From Nitrospirota bacterium (GTDB lineage: Bacteria > Nitrospirota > Nitrospiria > SBBL01 > JAADHI01), in the NCBI GenBank assembly GCA_029261165.1, contig JAJDBV010000033.1:1-45586 (forward strand): a stretch of DNA of 45,586 nt. Reading direction: 5' to 3'. Within the stretch, counting starts at the first letter, position 1. The number at the start of each line of letters is the position of its first letter. Below the pieces are notes generated by a model that worked only from the letters and a program-made list of their open reading frames with translations, was not told the DNA's origin and ran no database searches. Positions 4,852-10,442 of this stretch are shown here, one piece after another. The translations under genes and the position numbers were made by a program.

Positions 4852-4933
4852 ACGGATAAAAACTAAAATATCCGTGCTTTCTGGCAGTGAAGGCGAAGAA
4901 TCCTTAGTGATGGGTTTCTTCGCCTTTTTTTTT
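4852..4933 (+). ncRNA. Predicted ~80-nt small RNA or attenuated leader
   Basis: Directly after a consensus promoter come a dyad GCACGGAT/ATCCGTGC (4850-4857/4870-4877) with a 12-base A-rich loop, then a 10-bp perfect stem AGGCGAAGAA/TTCTTCGCCT (4891-4900/4916-4925) ending in a run of nine T. No ORF of useful length lies between promoter and terminator. The unit reads as a free small RNA of about 80 nt. Alternatively it is the 5' leader of the winged-helix operon (ATG 4984) controlled by premature termination, with the first dyad acting as an operator over the start site. It does not match a riboswitch class that I recognise. Signals are direct; the role is open. Confidence 0.5.
4891..4933 (+). 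terminator. Intrinsic terminator
   Basis: A perfect 10-bp stem, AGGCGAAGAA (4891-4900) with TTCTTCGCCT (4916-4925), has a 15-base loop and is followed by nine consecutive T bases (4925-4933). It would stop transcription started at the promoter at 4818-4846 after about 80 nt, and lies only 50 bases before the winged-helix gene. Confidence 0.75.
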
Positions 4934-4983: not shown

Positions 4984-5229
4984 ATGGTAAAAATTGATGT
5001 CTTGAACCTTCTTGCCGAAAGGCCGGACATGGATGCAGCCACTGTTGCAGCATACTTTAATGGAAGCCGGGAGTCCGCCGGCATGATTCTCCTTAGACTA
5101 AACCGGCAGGGATTGATCAGCCGTTCTTTAGATCCGGATCAACGTGTTTTGTTCTACGCCCTCACCTCAAAAGGGTTTGACCGTCTTCGATACCTATTAG
5201 AGAGAGCGATGAAAAAAGAGGAGGATTAA
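4984..5229 (+). CDS. Small winged-helix DNA-binding protein
   Basis: The start at ATG 4984 is set by AGGAGGAG six bases upstream; the longer frame from 4951 has no such site. The 81-aa product reads as one winged-helix domain: helix VLNLLAERPDM, recognition helix region AATVAAYFNGSRESAGMILLRLNRQGLI, then a wing (SRSLDPDQRVLFYALTSKG) and a C-terminal helix (FDRLRYLLERAMKK). This is the MarR/PadR/ArsR type of fold, with no ligand pocket or metal motif visible. Its stop codon TAA is immediately followed by the ATG of the next gene, so the two are translationally coupled. In its place at the head of the integrative module it may control excision or the small-RNA promoter. Confidence 0.72.
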   Translation: MVKIDVLNLLAERPDMDAATVAAYFNGSRESAGMILLRLNRQGLISRSLDPDQRVLFYALTSKGFDRLRYLLERAMKKEED

Positions 5230-5691
5230 ATGCCAAGTAAACCACCCATTCAAAACCGAAGGAACAGTGCCCAGGGAGAATTCGCCAAAAAGAAAGAGGA
5301 GCATCGAAACTGGCTGTCACAGTGGAAAGATCGTGCAGTTTTGATGTTACCGACAGGCGCACCGGCGGACGCAAGGGCACGGCTTCGTAAAGCCATAGAA
5401 AAAGAATTAACCCCATATGGACCCAAAGACCCTGTTGGCGAAATAACCGATATTGTGACTGCCATCGTGGAGAAAGAAAAAACACGCCTTCAAGAAAAAA
5501 AAAGGGGGTCCGTCTACCGCTGGGTCGTTCCCGCCCTTGGAATAGCAGCGGTAGCCCTTAAAACATCCCCGGGCCAAAAGCTGATCAAAAAGGGGGTTGC
5601 GCTTATCGAAGATAAACTATCGAACTGGATTCAAAAAGACGCAAACGCGAAAGACCCCAAAGACGGATCGAAAGGAAGCTCCAGGCGATGA
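5230..5691 (+). CDS. Basic protein of unknown function in integrative module
   Basis: The 153-aa protein starts at ATG 5230 directly after the previous stop, with GAGGA as a ribosome binding site inside the upstream gene. It has a strongly charged N-terminal half (QGEFAKKKEEHRNWLSQWKDR; TGAPADARARLRKAIEKEL), one short hydrophobic segment near residues 95-111 (RWVVPALGIAAVALK) and a Lys/Asp-rich tail (KDANAKDPKDGSKGSSRR). The layout suggests a single-pass or membrane-associated protein, but no family is recognised. Its 3' end (5665-5691) is part of a direct repeat found again at 7212-7256, next to the ParB-methylase start. In the ancestral arrangement its TGA overlapped that gene's ATG. Confidence 0.6.
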   Translation: MPSKPPIQNRRNSAQGEFAKKKEEHRNWLSQWKDRAVLMLPTGAPADARARLRKAIEKELTPYGPKDPVGEITDIVTAIVEKEKTRLQEKKRGSVYRWVVPALGIAAVALKTSPGQKLIKKGVALIEDKLSNWIQKDANAKDPKDGSKGSSRR

Positions 5692-5709
5692 AACAAACGG
5701 CGGACCGAA
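5665..5709 (+). repeat. Direct repeat, copy 1 (orphan start of ParB-methylase gene)
   Basis: Bases 5665-5709 align without gaps to 7212-7256 with about 37 of 45 identical. The repeat holds the end of the 153-aa gene and an ATG (5688) followed by codons for KQTADR, matching EQTADR after the ATG at 7235. Copy 1 is therefore an orphaned start of the ParB-methyltransferase gene, cut off by the 318-aa/46-aa segment. Confidence 0.65.
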
Positions 5710-5744
5710 AGGATGTGAGATGGAAAGCACACTTTCAGGTTTTT

Positions 5745-6701
5745 TTAAGATTGGGGTCCATATGTAAATACAGAAAGGCCTTGTTGCCACTCCTCCCACC
5801 ATATCGGAAGCGAAACGAGGGTCGCAGCGTATGGATTCATATCAGAAGAATCATTGGGTACGGAAACATTGATTGTGCGCCCCTCAATTTTTGGATGTGG
5901 CAAATCGACATCGCTGCACTTATCCAAGTGAATGGTCCCTGCTGGTGGCGAGGAATCTCCTAGGAACCGGGTCGTGATGAGCACCTCGTGGGGACTTATC
6001 CACACATCAGGCTCCTCTCCAGTGAGGACCCCCTTCTTAGCAACACGATTCAGTATTGCACGCCGGATTTTGACGAGCTTCTTGATCCATGCAACATGAA
6101 TCTTACCATCCATACCTACTGGTTGTAGTTGAAATTGTGAAGTCTTATCCTCACCCTGTAAAGGGTTAACTTTCTTCAATTGTTTCTCAATGGGGGTCCT
6201 AATCCAGCGCTCGAACCCTTCATCTTTCATCCGCCGATGGAGCTGCTTATCAAGCAGTACCTTTGCAGCGACAGTAGCATGGTTTTTTGCCTTTCGCCTT
6301 ATTTTACCAAATTCTGTCCTCACCTCTTTTTCAAAAAGTGTATTCCGATTCAAAAGTCTTTCTATGAACTTGGATAATGATTCGAAAGTACACGCCTTAC
6401 CATCCTCTTTGAGTGTTCTTCTGATTAGGTAAGCTGCCCAAAAAGCCCATTCCGCCGTCTTAGGACGGCCACGCTGCATGCCATAGCGAGTCTGGGAAAG
6501 GATACTTTCTTCAGGTACTGTCGCCGGAGGGGAGGGCGGCGGGTAAGTGGAATTCATCAATGTCGAGAAGGCCAGACGGGAGAGGGCCGCCATATCAAGT
6601 AACGCCCCCATCTGAGTCTCGTCAATCCCCCATGTCACCTGCAGGTCTTGTAAATCTTCTAAGCGTATATCCGAAAGATACATCTTCACCAATGGTGACA
6701 T
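5745..6701 (-). CDS. Unknown 318-aa protein inserted in integrative module
   Basis: On the minus strand the start ATG (complement of 6699-6701) has GGAGGG six bases upstream; the 341-aa frame from 6770 includes this site and is less likely. The 318-aa product starts MSPLVKMYLSDIRLEDLQ. It has a proline-rich link (STYPPPSPPATVPEE, about residues 71-85), a basic helical middle (RTEFGKIRRKAKNHATVAAK; KQLHRRMKDEGFERWI) and a C-terminal part with several aspartates (DKCSDVDLPHPKIEGR; WWEEWQQ). No signal peptide, membrane segment or known catalytic motif is visible, and I do not recognise a family. It is transcribed against the module and divergent from a 46-aa acidic protein. A diverged direct repeat flanks the pair, so it appears to be a later insertion. 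Confidence 0.6.
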   Translation of the reverse strand: MSPLVKMYLSDIRLEDLQDLQVTWGIDETQMGALLDMAALSRLAFSTLMNSTYPPPSPPATVPEESILSQTRYGMQRGRPKTAEWAFWAAYLIRRTLKEDGKACTFESLSKFIERLLNRNTLFEKEVRTEFGKIRRKAKNHATVAAKVLLDKQLHRRMKDEGFERWIRTPIEKQLKKVNPLQGEDKTSQFQLQPVGMDGKIHVAWIKKLVKIRRAILNRVAKKGVLTGEEPDVWISPHEVLITTRFLGDSSPPAGTIHLDKCSDVDLPHPKIEGRTINVSVPNDSSDMNPYAATLVSLPIWWEEWQQGLSVFTYGPQS

Positions 6702-6846
6702 CTCATTCCCTCCGCCAGTGAAAACACCAAGCATCGACCTATTTATACAGGCTCGACGAAATGATAACAAATATGGCCATAATCTAACTCGTAAAACAGA
6801 TTCTAATCAAGGAAACACGATGAACCTTTTAGCCATGGAGGCACCT

Positions 6847-6987
6847 ATGAGCAAAGATGAAATGTTGGAGAGGATAGAAGCGCTGGAGACAGCGCTGGCA
6901 AAAATTATTGGTTTCGGCGGAGCAGTCTTAGGGAATGAAAATAACGACCCAAACGAGGAGGAAGAAGACGAGTTCTACCGGAGATAG
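6847..6987 (+). CDS. Small acidic protein, 46 aa
   Basis: GGAGG at 6837-6841 lies five bases before ATG 6847, so I take this start over the longer frames from 6718 or 6820. The 46-aa product begins MSKDEMLERIEALETALAKI, a short amphipathic or coiled-coil helix. It continues through a glycine-rich turn (GFGGAVLG) and ends in an acidic tail (PNEEEEDEFYRR). It is divergent from the 318-aa gene, with 145 bases between their starts, and followed by a G/C-rich hairpin. The size, the acidity and the divergent partner could fit an antitoxin-like, inhibitor or phage-type accessory role, but nothing in the sequence proves one. Confidence 0.5.
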   Translation: MSKDEMLERIEALETALAKIIGFGGAVLGNENNDPNEEEEDEFYRR

Positions 6988-6998
6988 TCAATGTCTTT

Positions 6999-7045
6999 GG
7001 GGAGGGGGGGGCTCAAAGTTCCGCCCCTCCCTGGAGTTTTTATTT
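6999..7045 (+). terminator. Probable intrinsic terminator after the 46-aa gene
   Basis: A G-run arm (GGGGAGGGG at about 6999-7007, with further Gs) can pair with CCGCCCCTCCC at 7021-7031, followed after TGGAG by TTTTTATTT (7037-7045). The stem is strong but the T-run starts about five bases after it. It would end the 46-aa transcript before the ParB-methylase gene. Confidence 0.5.
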
Positions 7046-7211
7046 AGGGCACCGGTGATGAAGCCGAAATGATTACCCTTGTCCCCATTTGGGTGCAAAT
7101 AACTTAGGTTCCACAGTGTTCACCACAGCTAACTTATATTGTGTGCCAAAACCCCGGAAAGGGCTTTCTGGCACAGGGTTCAACGATATCACGAGGTAAA
7201 GGCCAGGGAAA

Positions 7212-7256
7212 GGAACAAAAGGGAAATCCAGGCAATGGAACAAACGGCGGATCGAA
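7212..7256 (+). repeat. Direct repeat, copy 2 (functional ParB-methylase start)
   Basis: This is the partner of 5665-5709 (about 37/45 identical). It spans the ATG at 7235 of the ParB-methyltransferase gene. Upstream of the repeat, in the frame of the 153-aa gene, it still encodes a GTKGKSRQ-like stretch matching that gene's GSKGSSRR end, so the duplicated unit included the end of one gene and the start of the next. Confidence 0.65.
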
Positions 7257-8428
7257 TACAACTCAAGGAAATCATACAAGACCGCTCCGTCTGGCTCCGG
7301 TCTGAGTACGACACCGAGGCATTGAAGCGGTATCGGGAATCCATCGACCGTCTTCCACCGGTTAGAGTGGATCGATTCAGCCGCGTCCTTCTAGATGGGT
7401 TTCACCGAGTCAGAGTCCTAAAAGAAAAGGGGAATGAAGAGATCCCTGTGATCTTTGAGGAATGTTCAAGCAAAAAACAACTTGCACGGGCCTTGGAGTT
7501 GAACCTTCATGGGACACCCATCCCCATCGAGCAGCGCAACAAAGTCCTCATAAAACTGTCAAACCAGGGATTGACTCAGAAAGAGATCGCAAAGGCCTCC
7601 GGGCTCTCTCAAAAGCGAGTGTCCCAAATACTAGTTAATTCTAAACGGGACAGCCCCGATAAGAAGAAGCTCTTTGAGGCCATCCGTCTGGTAGAAGGAG
7701 GTAAATCGCTTCGGGAGGCAGAGAGGTCAACAGGCGTTCCGAAATCGACACTGGAGCGGGCCGTCCTGGAAGCAAAATCTCGGCAGGAAGTCATCATAAA
7801 GCACCTCCAATCCCGAGGCAGCCTGACCTCCCTTTTGCGATATCCCGACCGAGGACCCTGGGGGAAAGGAAGTTATTCAGGGAACGGCTCAGGCTATATC
7901 ATTGTGGACCTGCTCGATTACCTCAAGCCGAAGTCCGTTTTTGACCCCATGGAGGGATCGGGAACCACGAGAGAGGTCTGTTTTGACCTCAAGGTCGATT
8001 ATGAAGGGAGGGACTTAAACTCAGGGTTTGACCTACTCTCTTCCCCTCTCCCAGAACAAAAGTTTGATTTGATCTTCTGGCATCCTCCCTATTGGCCGGG
8101 GTTTAAATACAGCAGCCATCCAAATGACTTTTCCAATGTTAAGAAGATACAAGACTTCAAGGAACGCATACACGATGGTTTTGTCCGTCTGAGAGATCTT
8201 CTATCCCCTGATGGCCATCTCGTTATCATGATTGGGGATGGCAGAAAGAACGGGACCTTCTACCCCATCCATAGCGAAATCATACAATGGAAACTCCTCC
8301 CATTAGAGGCCGTCTTAGTCAAAACCGGAGACCACGAACGGCAAGGAGCTCACTTTCGCTACGGCCCAGCAAAGTTTATCCCGACACTTCATGAGTATGT
8401 CTTGATCTTTAAAGGGGGTAGCCAATGA
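7235..8428 (+). CDS. ParB-like/HTH/DNA methyltransferase fusion protein
   Basis: From ATG 7235 the product is 397 aa; an upstream TTG (7139) would add 32 residues of doubtful origin. Residues 1-95 form a ParB/sulfiredoxin-like domain with the motif LDGFHR (about 53-58). A first HTH (LTQKEIAKASGLSQKRVSQI, about 108-128) and a second (SLREAERSTGVPKSTLERAV) follow. The C-terminal half is an S-adenosylmethionine-dependent DNA methyltransferase with motif I FDPMEGSGTT (about 236-245) and catalytic motif IV HPPYW (about 283-287), where most amino-methyltransferases have DPPY. Such fusions are found in phages and integrative elements. The gene ends in an ATGA overlap with the serine recombinase. Modified base and target are unknown. 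Confidence 0.82.
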   Translation: MEQTADRIQLKEIIQDRSVWLRSEYDTEALKRYRESIDRLPPVRVDRFSRVLLDGFHRVRVLKEKGNEEIPVIFEECSSKKQLARALELNLHGTPIPIEQRNKVLIKLSNQGLTQKEIAKASGLSQKRVSQILVNSKRDSPDKKKLFEAIRLVEGGKSLREAERSTGVPKSTLERAVLEAKSRQEVIIKHLQSRGSLTSLLRYPDRGPWGKGSYSGNGSGYIIVDLLDYLKPKSVFDPMEGSGTTREVCFDLKVDYEGRDLNSGFDLLSSPLPEQKFDLIFWHPPYWPGFKYSSHPNDFSNVKKIQDFKERIHDGFVRLRDLLSPDGHLVIMIGDGRKNGTFYPIHSEIIQWKLLPLEAVLVKTGDHERQGAHFRYGPAKFIPTLHEYVLIFKGGSQ

Positions 8429-9012
8429 AAGTAGCCCTCTACGCCCGGGTCAGTACCCAGGGACAAGACACAGAATTGCAACTATCGGCCCTTCGATCTC
8501 ATGCCACGAATCGGGGATGGGAGATTACCGAAGAGTATGTTGACCGGGGGGTCTCCGGGGCCAAAGAGAGAAGGCCCGCCCTGGATCGTATGTTAAAGGA
8601 GGCTTGGATTGGAAGATTCAATGTGGTCTTGGTCTGGCGCTTCGACCGTTTTGCCCGGTCGGTGAAACATTTGATTTCCGCCCTGGAGAACTTCAAGAAA
8701 TTGAATATCGACTTTATCTCGCTACAAGAACAGTTTGATACCTCAAGCCCCATCGGACAGGCGATGTTCATTATCATCGGCGCAATGGCACAACTGGAGA
8801 GGGATATCATCAGAGAAAGGGTGAAGGCCGGGCTTGATCGGGCAAGGGCGAAGGGGGTTCGTCTCGGAAGACCACCTTCTTCAGCTAGACCGGATCAAGC
8901 ATTGGCCTTGAAAGAGAAAGGGCTTTCTCTTCAAGAGATTGCACATAAATTACATTGCAGCCGCTCCACGGCGCGAAGGAGAATCCAGGAGGCAAGAGAT
9001 GGACTTCCCTAA
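8425..9012 (+). CDS. Serine recombinase (resolvase/invertase family)
   Basis: This 195-aa small serine recombinase has the catalytic block YARVST with Arg8 and nucleophile Ser10. It also has the second arginine cluster FDRFARS (about 69-75) and the long E helix QLERDIIRERVKAGLDRARAKG leading into LGRPP. The C-terminal 45 residues form a resolvase-type HTH (LSLQEIAHKLHCSRSTARRRI). The length is normal for Tn3-resolvase/Hin-type enzymes that resolve or invert DNA. Its ATG overlaps the methyltransferase stop (ATGA) and its 3' end overlaps the excisionase-like gene. It may resolve element dimers or flip a segment; crossover sites were not identified. Confidence 0.9.
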   Translation: MKVALYARVSTQGQDTELQLSALRSHATNRGWEITEEYVDRGVSGAKERRPALDRMLKEAWIGRFNVVLVWRFDRFARSVKHLISALENFKKLNIDFISLQEQFDTSSPIGQAMFIIIGAMAQLERDIIRERVKAGLDRARAKGVRLGRPPSSARPDQALALKEKGLSLQEIAHKLHCSRSTARRRIQEARDGLP

Positions 9013-9233: not shown

Positions 9234-10301
9234 ATGGGAAGAATATATAAGCGAGGGAAAAACTGGTGGATACAATATTACCGGGGGGGCCAACTCTACC
9301 GGGAGTCCAGCCGCTCTGCCCTGAAATCGGTTGCCTCTACCCTAATAAAGAAGAGGGAGGGCGATATCGCCGATGGAAGACTCCCCGCCCTTCAAGCCGA
9401 GAAGACAACGCTTGAAGACCTTGTTGAACTCTATATCCAGGATTACGAGATTAACAAGAAAAAAAGTATTGCCCGAGCCAGGCAATTGGCCAAGCATCTG
9501 ACAAAAGAATTTAAAGGGCTGAAAGCCCTCCAAATCACAAGCACGAGAATCAACGATTACATCTTAAGTAGACAGTCCGAAAACGCGGCCAACGCGACCA
9601 TCAACCTGGAACTTTCCGCCCTAAAGAGAATGTTTCATCTCGCCTCACGACAAACACCCCCCTTAGTCACTTCTCGGCCTCACATCGACCTTCTCAAGGA
9701 AGATAATGTCAGAAAGGGCTTCTTCACCCTGGAAGAATACAAACTCCTTAGAGCCGCCTTACCGGACCACATCAAGATTCCCTTTATTATTGGCTTCTGG
9801 ACGGGAATGAGGGCAGGAGAAATCGTAAATCTTAAATGGGAGCAGATAAATCCTGATGAAGGATGGCTACGACTAGAGCCTGGAACGACAAAGAATGGGA
9901 AAGGAAGATCGATTCCCTTGGTCCAAGAGGTGAGAGAAGTCCTCCAGAAGTGGAAAGACGACACCGGACTCCGTTACCCCCAGAGTCCATGGGTTTGCCA
10001 TTACAAAGGGGAACGACTGAGAAGGATACCCCATCGGACATGGGATAAAATCTGTGAACGAGTAGGCCTAAAGGGGAAACTCTTTCATGATCTTCGAAGA
10101 ACGGCGGTTCGGAATATGGTGAGGGCTGGAATCTCGGAGCGGGTGGCAATGGAAATCACGGGGCATAAAACCCGGTCGGTTTTTGACCGCTATGACATTG
10201 TAGATGAAACAGATCTTTCTAATGCAGCGATTCTTCTTCAGGAGGGGTTGAGAAATTCAGCGAGGATTCAAGAAGAGATTCACATCAGTTTGCCGGAATG
10301 A
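9234..10301 (+). CDS. Tyrosine recombinase/integrase
   Basis: The 355-aa integrase starts with an arm-type region (MGRIYKRGKNWWIQYYRGGQ). A SAM-like core-binding domain (about 60-150) and the catalytic domain follow. The catalytic residues are visible: Arg193 in TGMRAGE, HDLRR with His285 and Arg288, His311 in TGHKTRS, and the nucleophile Tyr320 in FDRYDI. Length and order are normal for phage and island integrases. The start ATG 9234 has an AGGG-type site, and the gene lies 37 bases after the excisionase-like gene and points at the 3' end of tRNA-Arg, the likely attachment site. Confidence 0.93.
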   Translation: MGRIYKRGKNWWIQYYRGGQLYRESSRSALKSVASTLIKKREGDIADGRLPALQAEKTTLEDLVELYIQDYEINKKKSIARARQLAKHLTKEFKGLKALQITSTRINDYILSRQSENAANATINLELSALKRMFHLASRQTPPLVTSRPHIDLLKEDNVRKGFFTLEEYKLLRAALPDHIKIPFIIGFWTGMRAGEIVNLKWEQINPDEGWLRLEPGTTKNGKGRSIPLVQEVREVLQKWKDDTGLRYPQSPWVCHYKGERLRRIPHRTWDKICERVGLKGKLFHDLRRTAVRNMVRAGISERVAMEITGHKTRSVFDRYDIVDETDLSNAAILLQEGLRNSARIQEEIHISLPE

Positions 10302-10365: not shown

Positions 10366-10442
10366 TGGTGCCCCCGGGGTGATTCGAACACCCGACACAC
10401 GATTTAGGAAACCGTTGCTCTATCCACCTGAGCTACGGGGGC
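10366..10442 (-). tRNA. tRNA-Arg (anticodon CCU)
   Basis: Read on the minus strand it folds as a full cloverleaf: acceptor GCCCCCG/CGGGGGC, D-stem GCTC/GAGC, anticodon stem ACGGT/ATCGT with loop TTCCTAA (anticodon CCT), T-stem GGGTG/CACCC with TTCGAAT, and an encoded CCA end. It decodes AGG. The 3' end faces the integrase gene, 64 bases away, so its 3' half is the probable attB-derived sequence of the integrated element and has been restored to full length. Confidence 0.95.

What the first reader, a model, noticed from the sequence alone, without database searches (positions are those of the whole stretch)
5665..7256. Diverged direct repeat shows a gene pair inserted at a gene start
The 45-bp repeat (about 37/45 identical) carries the end of the 153-aa gene and the start of the ParB-methylase gene at both borders of a 1.5-kb segment with a divergent 318-aa/46-aa pair. 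So the ParB-methylase start was duplicated and the first copy orphaned. This is how a cargo (possibly toxin-inhibitor or defence) gene pair might be loaded between two coupled genes.
Basis: seen in the sequence. Interest (0 to 1): 0.6.

Follow-up and report, generated by a model that had tools for sequence, protein, structure and literature searches.

The report
Gene pair spliced between coupled genes
In a mobile element of a Nitrospirota bacterium, two small genes have been inserted exactly where two neighbouring genes once overlapped, and the overlap was copied to both sides so that neither neighbour was damaged; this is real but an ordinary kind of mobile-element remodelling.

Summary
The 45-bp diverged direct repeat is real: 37/45 identical, the only 45-mer pair with 35 or more matches in the 45.6-kb window, and just two copies in the host genome. 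The insertion reading is supported. The 153-aa gene family was found at three other loci. In each, its end abuts or overlaps the next element gene, with no 318-aa/46-aa pair between: L003 (TGATG, followed by the same ParB-methylase), L123 (ATGA, excisionase-like gene) and L122 (20-nt overlap, excisionase-like gene). The L122 junction aligns with copy 1, marking it as the native end of the 153-aa gene; copy 2 runs into the native ParB-methylase start. So the overlap was duplicated, leaving an orphan start in copy 1 and an orphan gene tail in copy 2. The insert also brings a hairpin/T-run terminator, so the integrase-side genes are probably expressed separately.

The 'toxin-inhibitor or defence cargo' guess is not supported. 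Homologues of the 318-aa protein (35% and 26%) lie divergent from excisionase–integrase genes of other elements. A resident gene, perhaps a regulator of mobility, is likelier, but its function is untested. The 46-aa gene has no detected relative. How the insert arrived is unresolved.

The parts
4984..5229 (+). 81-aa winged-helix (MarR-like) gene, upstream partner of the 153-aa gene
   Evidence: Weak MarR/HTH Pfam matches; the order is kept in L003, L122 and L123 at 52-55% identity
5230..5691 (+). 153-aa gene (p153) of unknown function; its TGA lies within ATGA at 5688-5691
   Evidence: Homologues in L003, L122 and L123, always followed directly by another element gene
5665..5709 (+). Repeat copy 1: native end of p153 plus an orphaned copy of the ParB-methylase start (ATG 5688)
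   Evidence: aligns with the L122 p153 end (2/500 strict and 0/500 lax shuffles reach the score), copy 2 does so much less
5710..7211 (.). Inserted segment lying between the two repeat copies
   Evidence: Absent at the same junction in L003, L122 and L123
5745..6701 (-). 318-aa gene (p318) of unknown function
   Evidence: No family match; homologues in L084 (35%) and L100 (26%) divergent from excisionase/integrase genes
6847..6987 (+). 46-aa gene with an acidic tail, divergent from p318; GGAGG a few nt upstream of its ATG
   Evidence: Open frame; no relative in any other locus held
6995..7042 (+). Strong G+C-rich hairpin followed by a T-run; probable terminator of the 46-aa gene
   Evidence: Fold -32.2 kcal/mol, z -2.1; the T-run is seen in the sequence; the consensus scan did not list it
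7142..7175 (.). 10-nt inverted repeat TGTGCCAAAA/TTCTGGCACA in the presumed promoter region of ParB-methylase; possible operator
   Evidence: function not tested
7212..7256 (+). Repeat copy 2: duplicated p153 tail plus the native ParB-methylase start (ATG 7235)
7235..8428 (+). ParB-like/HTH/DNA-methylase fusion
   Evidence: Pfam N6_N4_Mtase 8.9e-09, HTH_3; PHROG ParB-like partition protein 8.2e-08
8425..9012 (+). Serine recombinase (resolvase family)
   Evidence: Pfam Resolvase 1.8e-46; 68-71% identical in L002, L085, L097 and L098
8999..9196 (+). Excisionase-like HTH_17 gene
   Evidence: Pfam HTH_17 4.5e-07
9234..10301 (+). Tyrosine integrase
   Evidence: Pfam Phage_integrase 3.6e-21
10366..10442 (-). 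tRNA-Arg(CCT), the integration site of this element family
   Evidence: the same tRNA lies near the same integrase in L085, L097 and L098; 47-bp att repeat in L097

Best explanation
The window holds the integrase end of an integrative element at tRNA-Arg(CCT). Its ancestor had marR-p153-ParB-methylase-resolvase-excisionase-integrase, with p153 and ParB-methylase overlapping stop to start. In this lineage a roughly 1.5-kb segment with the divergent p318/p46 pair and its own terminator was placed at that overlap. The overlap was duplicated on both sides, so p153 kept its stop and ParB-methylase kept its ribosome-binding region and start. Copy 1 therefore carries an orphan start and copy 2 an orphan p153 tail. 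Shown: the repeat, its polarity, and relatives without the pair. Inferred: the event was a recombination or duplication between related junction sequences rather than transposition; ParB-methylase to integrase is now transcribed separately from p153; and p318 is an element-resident gene, perhaps controlling the recombination module.
For: The repeat is unique and beyond chance. L003 keeps marR-p153-ParB-methylase without the pair. The ATG overlapping its p153 stop is the best of 270 ATGs in that contig when matched to copy 2 (20/30; next best 16) and encodes MEPTIHRI against MEQTADRI. L123 has an exact ATGA overlap and L122 a 20-nt overlap between p153 and the next gene, again without the pair. 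The L122 p153 end aligns with copy 1, much less with copy 2. The pair is absent upstream of ParB-methylase in L002, L085 and L097. A hairpin with T-run follows the 46-aa gene. p318 homologues are divergent from excisionase/integrase in L084 and L100.
Against: Only one relative (L003) carries p153 directly before ParB-methylase, on a 5.8-kb contig that ends inside that gene, and there the coupled start is cut short after 8 codons and the real frame starts 108 nt on. The L003/copy 2 match is weak by free local alignment (74-92 of 500-1000 shuffles reach it under lax scoring); it stands out only when anchored at the start codon. A loss of the pair in L003 leaving that spacer cannot be fully excluded, though neither strand of the insert gave a convincing match to the spacer (one weak minus-strand match, score 30 against a shuffle maximum of 29). 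A 45-bp duplication is longer than transposon target duplications, and no terminal inverted repeats or recombinase gene were found in the insert. The p318 role rests on gene position only.
Confidence: 0.77

Rival explanations
1. The pair was ancestral at this junction and was lost in the other lineages; the 108-nt spacer of L003 would be its scar.
For: L003 has an unexplained 108-nt spacer after a coupled start that reads only 8 codons.
Against: Three of four p153 loci lack the pair, two of them with clean overlaps to a different next gene. Copy 1 is duplicated sequence, which needs a prior uninterrupted junction in any case. The L003 spacer shows no convincing match to the insert.
Confidence: 0.1
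2. Copies 1 and 2 are two binding or crossover sites (for the ParB-like protein or the serine recombinase) kept by selection, and the pair is a cassette that can be excised between them.
For: A resolvase-family recombinase and a ParB/HTH protein are encoded immediately downstream; the repeat is imperfect yet recognisable.
Against: No copy of the 45-mer in other elements of the family beyond homologous p153 tail sequence; no exact match to the core in viral contigs; no evident inverted symmetry inside the repeat; only two copies in the genome.
Confidence: 0.07
3. The repeat arose by chance in purine-rich coding sequence and p318/p46 simply lies between two unrelated genes.
For: The region is purine-rich and has weaker internal near-repeats.
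Against: Score 50 against a shuffle maximum of 34, unique in the window, and placed exactly at the stop/start of the two genes.
Confidence: 0.03

Closest known systems
Small integrative elements inserted in tRNA 3' ends (tyrosine integrase plus excisionase with variable genes)
   Same: Integrase beside tRNA-Arg(CCT) in four genomes, a 47-bp att repeat bounding a 10-kb relative in L097, a conserved integrase end and a variable remainder
   Different: The integrase end also carries a ParB/methylase fusion and a serine recombinase; the left end of this element is not in the window
Accessory-gene (moron-like) insertions in phages and mobile elements: extra genes with their own promoter or terminator between two co-oriented genes (own knowledge)
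   Same: A short segment with its own probable terminator lies between two genes that adjoin in relatives
   Different: Here the overlapping junction itself is duplicated on both sides, and the p318 family is tied to integrase modules rather than to cargo
ParB-like proteins fused to DNA methylases
   Same: ParB-like N-terminal half, HTH and N6/N4 methylase domain
   Different: The ParB_N match in Pfam is below the cut-off (E 0.2); no partner ParA was found beside it

Membership tests
Insertion with duplicated junction between coupled genes | Direct repeat at both borders beyond chance | tested here: met
Insertion with duplicated junction between coupled genes | Relatives with an uninterrupted junction | tested here: met
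   L003 (same gene pair, TGATG, with a 108-nt restart); L123 (ATGA) and L122 (overlap) with other downstream genes
Transposon insertion | Terminal inverted repeats, a short target duplication or a transposase in the insert | tested here: not met
   No such repeats at 5710/7211; p318 has no transposase match; 45 bp is too long for usual target duplications
Toxin-antitoxin or defence pair | Match of either protein to known toxin, antitoxin or defence families | tested here: not met
   No PADLOC, Pfam or NCBIfam match of note for p318 or p46
Toxin-antitoxin or defence pair | Two genes kept together in relatives | tested here: not met
   p318 homologues in L084 and L100 have no p46-like partner by tblastn; with only two homologues this is weak evidence
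Integrative element at tRNA-Arg(CCT) | Integrase next to tRNA 3' end, conserved site among relatives | tested here: met
Integrative element at tRNA-Arg(CCT) | Both att sites of this copy | tested here: inconclusive
   No second att in the window; two tRNA 3'-end fragments on other contigs of the genome

The most novel reading that the evidence does not exclude
The p153/next-gene overlap is a repeatedly used docking point: a 45-bp junction that the element's own recombinase or ParB-like protein recognises, so that gene cassettes such as p318/p46 can be loaded and removed without damage to either neighbour.
Probability: 0.05. Interest if true: 0.6.

Novelty: new member of a known kind. Interest (0 to 1): 0.27.

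Why it matters
It is a well-preserved example of how a mobile element can gain genes between two overlapping, probably translationally coupled genes without destroying either: the overlap has to be duplicated. It also draws attention to two uncharacterised families of Nitrospirota mobile elements, the marR–p153 module and the p318 protein that accompanies integrase genes. The mechanism as such is not new.

Tried and rejected
Toxin/defence cargo: no family match and no conserved partner. Transposon: no terminal repeats or transposase. Longer duplication: a lax alignment ran to about 109 columns, but anchored extension on both sides was at chance level. att site inside the window: no tRNA 3'-end repeat of 11 nt or more near the left. 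Relatives of p318 in viral contigs, phages and plasmids: none. Weak p318 matches in G469 and G424 did not hold up on looking at their loci or with the profile. Structure of p318 from a single sequence: mean pLDDT 34.6, unusable, so no fold search was run. An alignment-based fold was not sent because the homologues come from loci that the tool does not admit. Literature searches gave nothing on this module.

Full report
Observation. Two 45-bp segments, 5665-5709 and 7212-7256, match at 37/45 positions. No other 45-mer pair in the window reaches 35 matches, the Smith-Waterman score is 50 against a maximum of 34 in 200 dinucleotide shuffles, and the 30-nt core is found only at these two places in the 2.9-Mb genome. 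A lax alignment suggests a longer repeat, but extension outward from either border is no better than shuffled flanks, so I keep 45 bp. In copy 1 the 153-aa gene (p153) ends in the TGA of ATGA (5688-5691). In copy 2 the ATG at 7235 begins the ParB-methylase frame, and the p153 stop has become TGG.

Context. Downstream lie a serine recombinase, an excisionase-like HTH_17 gene and a tyrosine integrase, next to tRNA-Arg(CCT). The ParB-methylase–recombinase–integrase block recurs in other Nitrospirota genomes: L002, L085, L097 and L098. In L085, L097 and L098 it lies near the same tRNA, and in L097 a 47-bp tRNA repeat bounds a 10-kb element. The integrase end is constant and the rest is variable. 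The left end of this copy is not in the window.

Empty junctions. L003 (Nitrospirales OFTM238) has marR–p153–ParB-methylase with no p318/p46. Its p153 stop overlaps an ATG (TGATG), and of 270 ATGs in that contig this one matches the copy 2 start best (20 of 30; next 16), reading MEPTIHRI against MEQTADRI. By free local alignment the same match is not significant; the strength comes from its position. The frame then stops, and the ParB-methylase frame proper starts 108 nt after that ATG, so the junction is uninterrupted by the pair but not perfectly clean. A profile search for p153 across 269 genomes of the class found two more loci in one genome. L123 has an exact ATGA overlap between p153 and an excisionase-like gene, and L122 a 20-nt overlap with an excisionase-like gene followed by an integrase. 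Neither has the pair. Three of four p153 loci thus show p153 abutting or overlapping its next gene.

Polarity. The L122 p153 end aligns with the p153 tail and copy 1 of the window (0/500 lax and 2/500 strict shuffles reach the score), while copy 2 aligns much less well. Copy 1 is therefore the native p153 end. Copy 2 runs into the ParB-methylase frame and shares CGAATA..ACTC beyond the repeat with L003, so it is the native start. The right half of copy 1 and the left half of copy 2 are the duplicated parts. This is what an insertion at an overlap needs: without duplication one of the two genes would lose its stop or its start.

Consequences for expression (inferred). The 46-aa gene is followed by a strong hairpin and a T-run, and a T-run also lies just after copy 1 (near 5738-5744, seen in the sequence). 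Transcriptional and translational coupling of p153 to ParB-methylase is thus probably broken, and the integrase-side genes need their own promoter between about 7045 and 7230. An inverted repeat at 7142-7175 is a possible operator there. The simple promoter scan found no sigma-70 match at that place.

What the pair is. p318 has no match of note in Pfam, PHROGs, PADLOC or NCBIfam and no relative in viral contigs, phages or plasmids. Two homologues were found in the class: L084 (35%) and L100 (26%). In both, the gene is divergent from an excisionase-like gene and integrase at a tRNA-Lys(CTT)/tRNA-Arg(CCG) locus. In the window p318 is likewise divergent from the integrase-side genes. A resident gene of integrative elements, perhaps a regulator of their recombination genes, is the likeliest reading, but it rests on position alone. 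A single-sequence structure prediction failed (pLDDT 34.6). The 46-aa gene has no detected relative.

Mechanism of arrival. No terminal inverted repeats, no transposase and an unusually long duplication speak against a classical transposon. Recombination between two related elements that shared the junction, or duplication of the junction followed by insertion, fits better, with copies that have since diverged by 18%. This step is inferred.

Verdict. The insertion reading is supported, with the caveat about L003. The toxin or defence reading is not supported. The case is an instructive but ordinary example of modular evolution of integrative elements.

Noticed in passing
G000 contig C41 (L107:7632) and C54 (L108:2138): Two fragments of the tRNA-Arg(CCT) 3' end (56 and 29 nt identical to the window's tRNA region); ARAGORN finds no tRNA there. 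Beyond the anticodon loop both are followed by similar sequence with repeated CTACTCCAGC-like motifs, suggesting att sites of further elements or tandem remnants.
   Followed up: partly
L097:398-10505: A 10-kb relative of the element with both att sites (47-bp tRNA-Arg repeat) and a Prim-Pol primase/polymerase gene upstream of the ParB-methylase.
   Followed up: partly
L122:7130-9302 and L123:1365-3329: Conserved MerR-like, MarR-like, p153, excisionase-like gene order in two places of one genome; p153 family members share a hydrophobic segment near the C-terminus.
   Followed up: partly
window 7142-7175: Inverted repeat TGTGCCAAAA/TTCTGGCACA upstream of ParB-methylase; its GCTTTCTGGCA arm also occurs upstream of the marR gene, near 4876.
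   Followed up: no
window 7203-7247 and 5659-5713: Weaker near-repeats inside and beside both repeat copies (85% over 20 nt at spacing 25; 83% over 18 nt at spacing 37), perhaps traces of earlier slippage in purine-rich sequence.
   Followed up: no
L003:4503-4611: The ParB-methylase of L003 seems to have lost its coupled start (MEPTIHRI then stop) and restarts 108 nt downstream; the origin of the spacer is unexplained.
   Followed up: partly
L085:8000-8812 and L097:7080-8465: In two relatives the ParB-like N-terminal half of the methylase is missing or replaced, while the methylase half is kept next to the recombinase.
   Followed up: no
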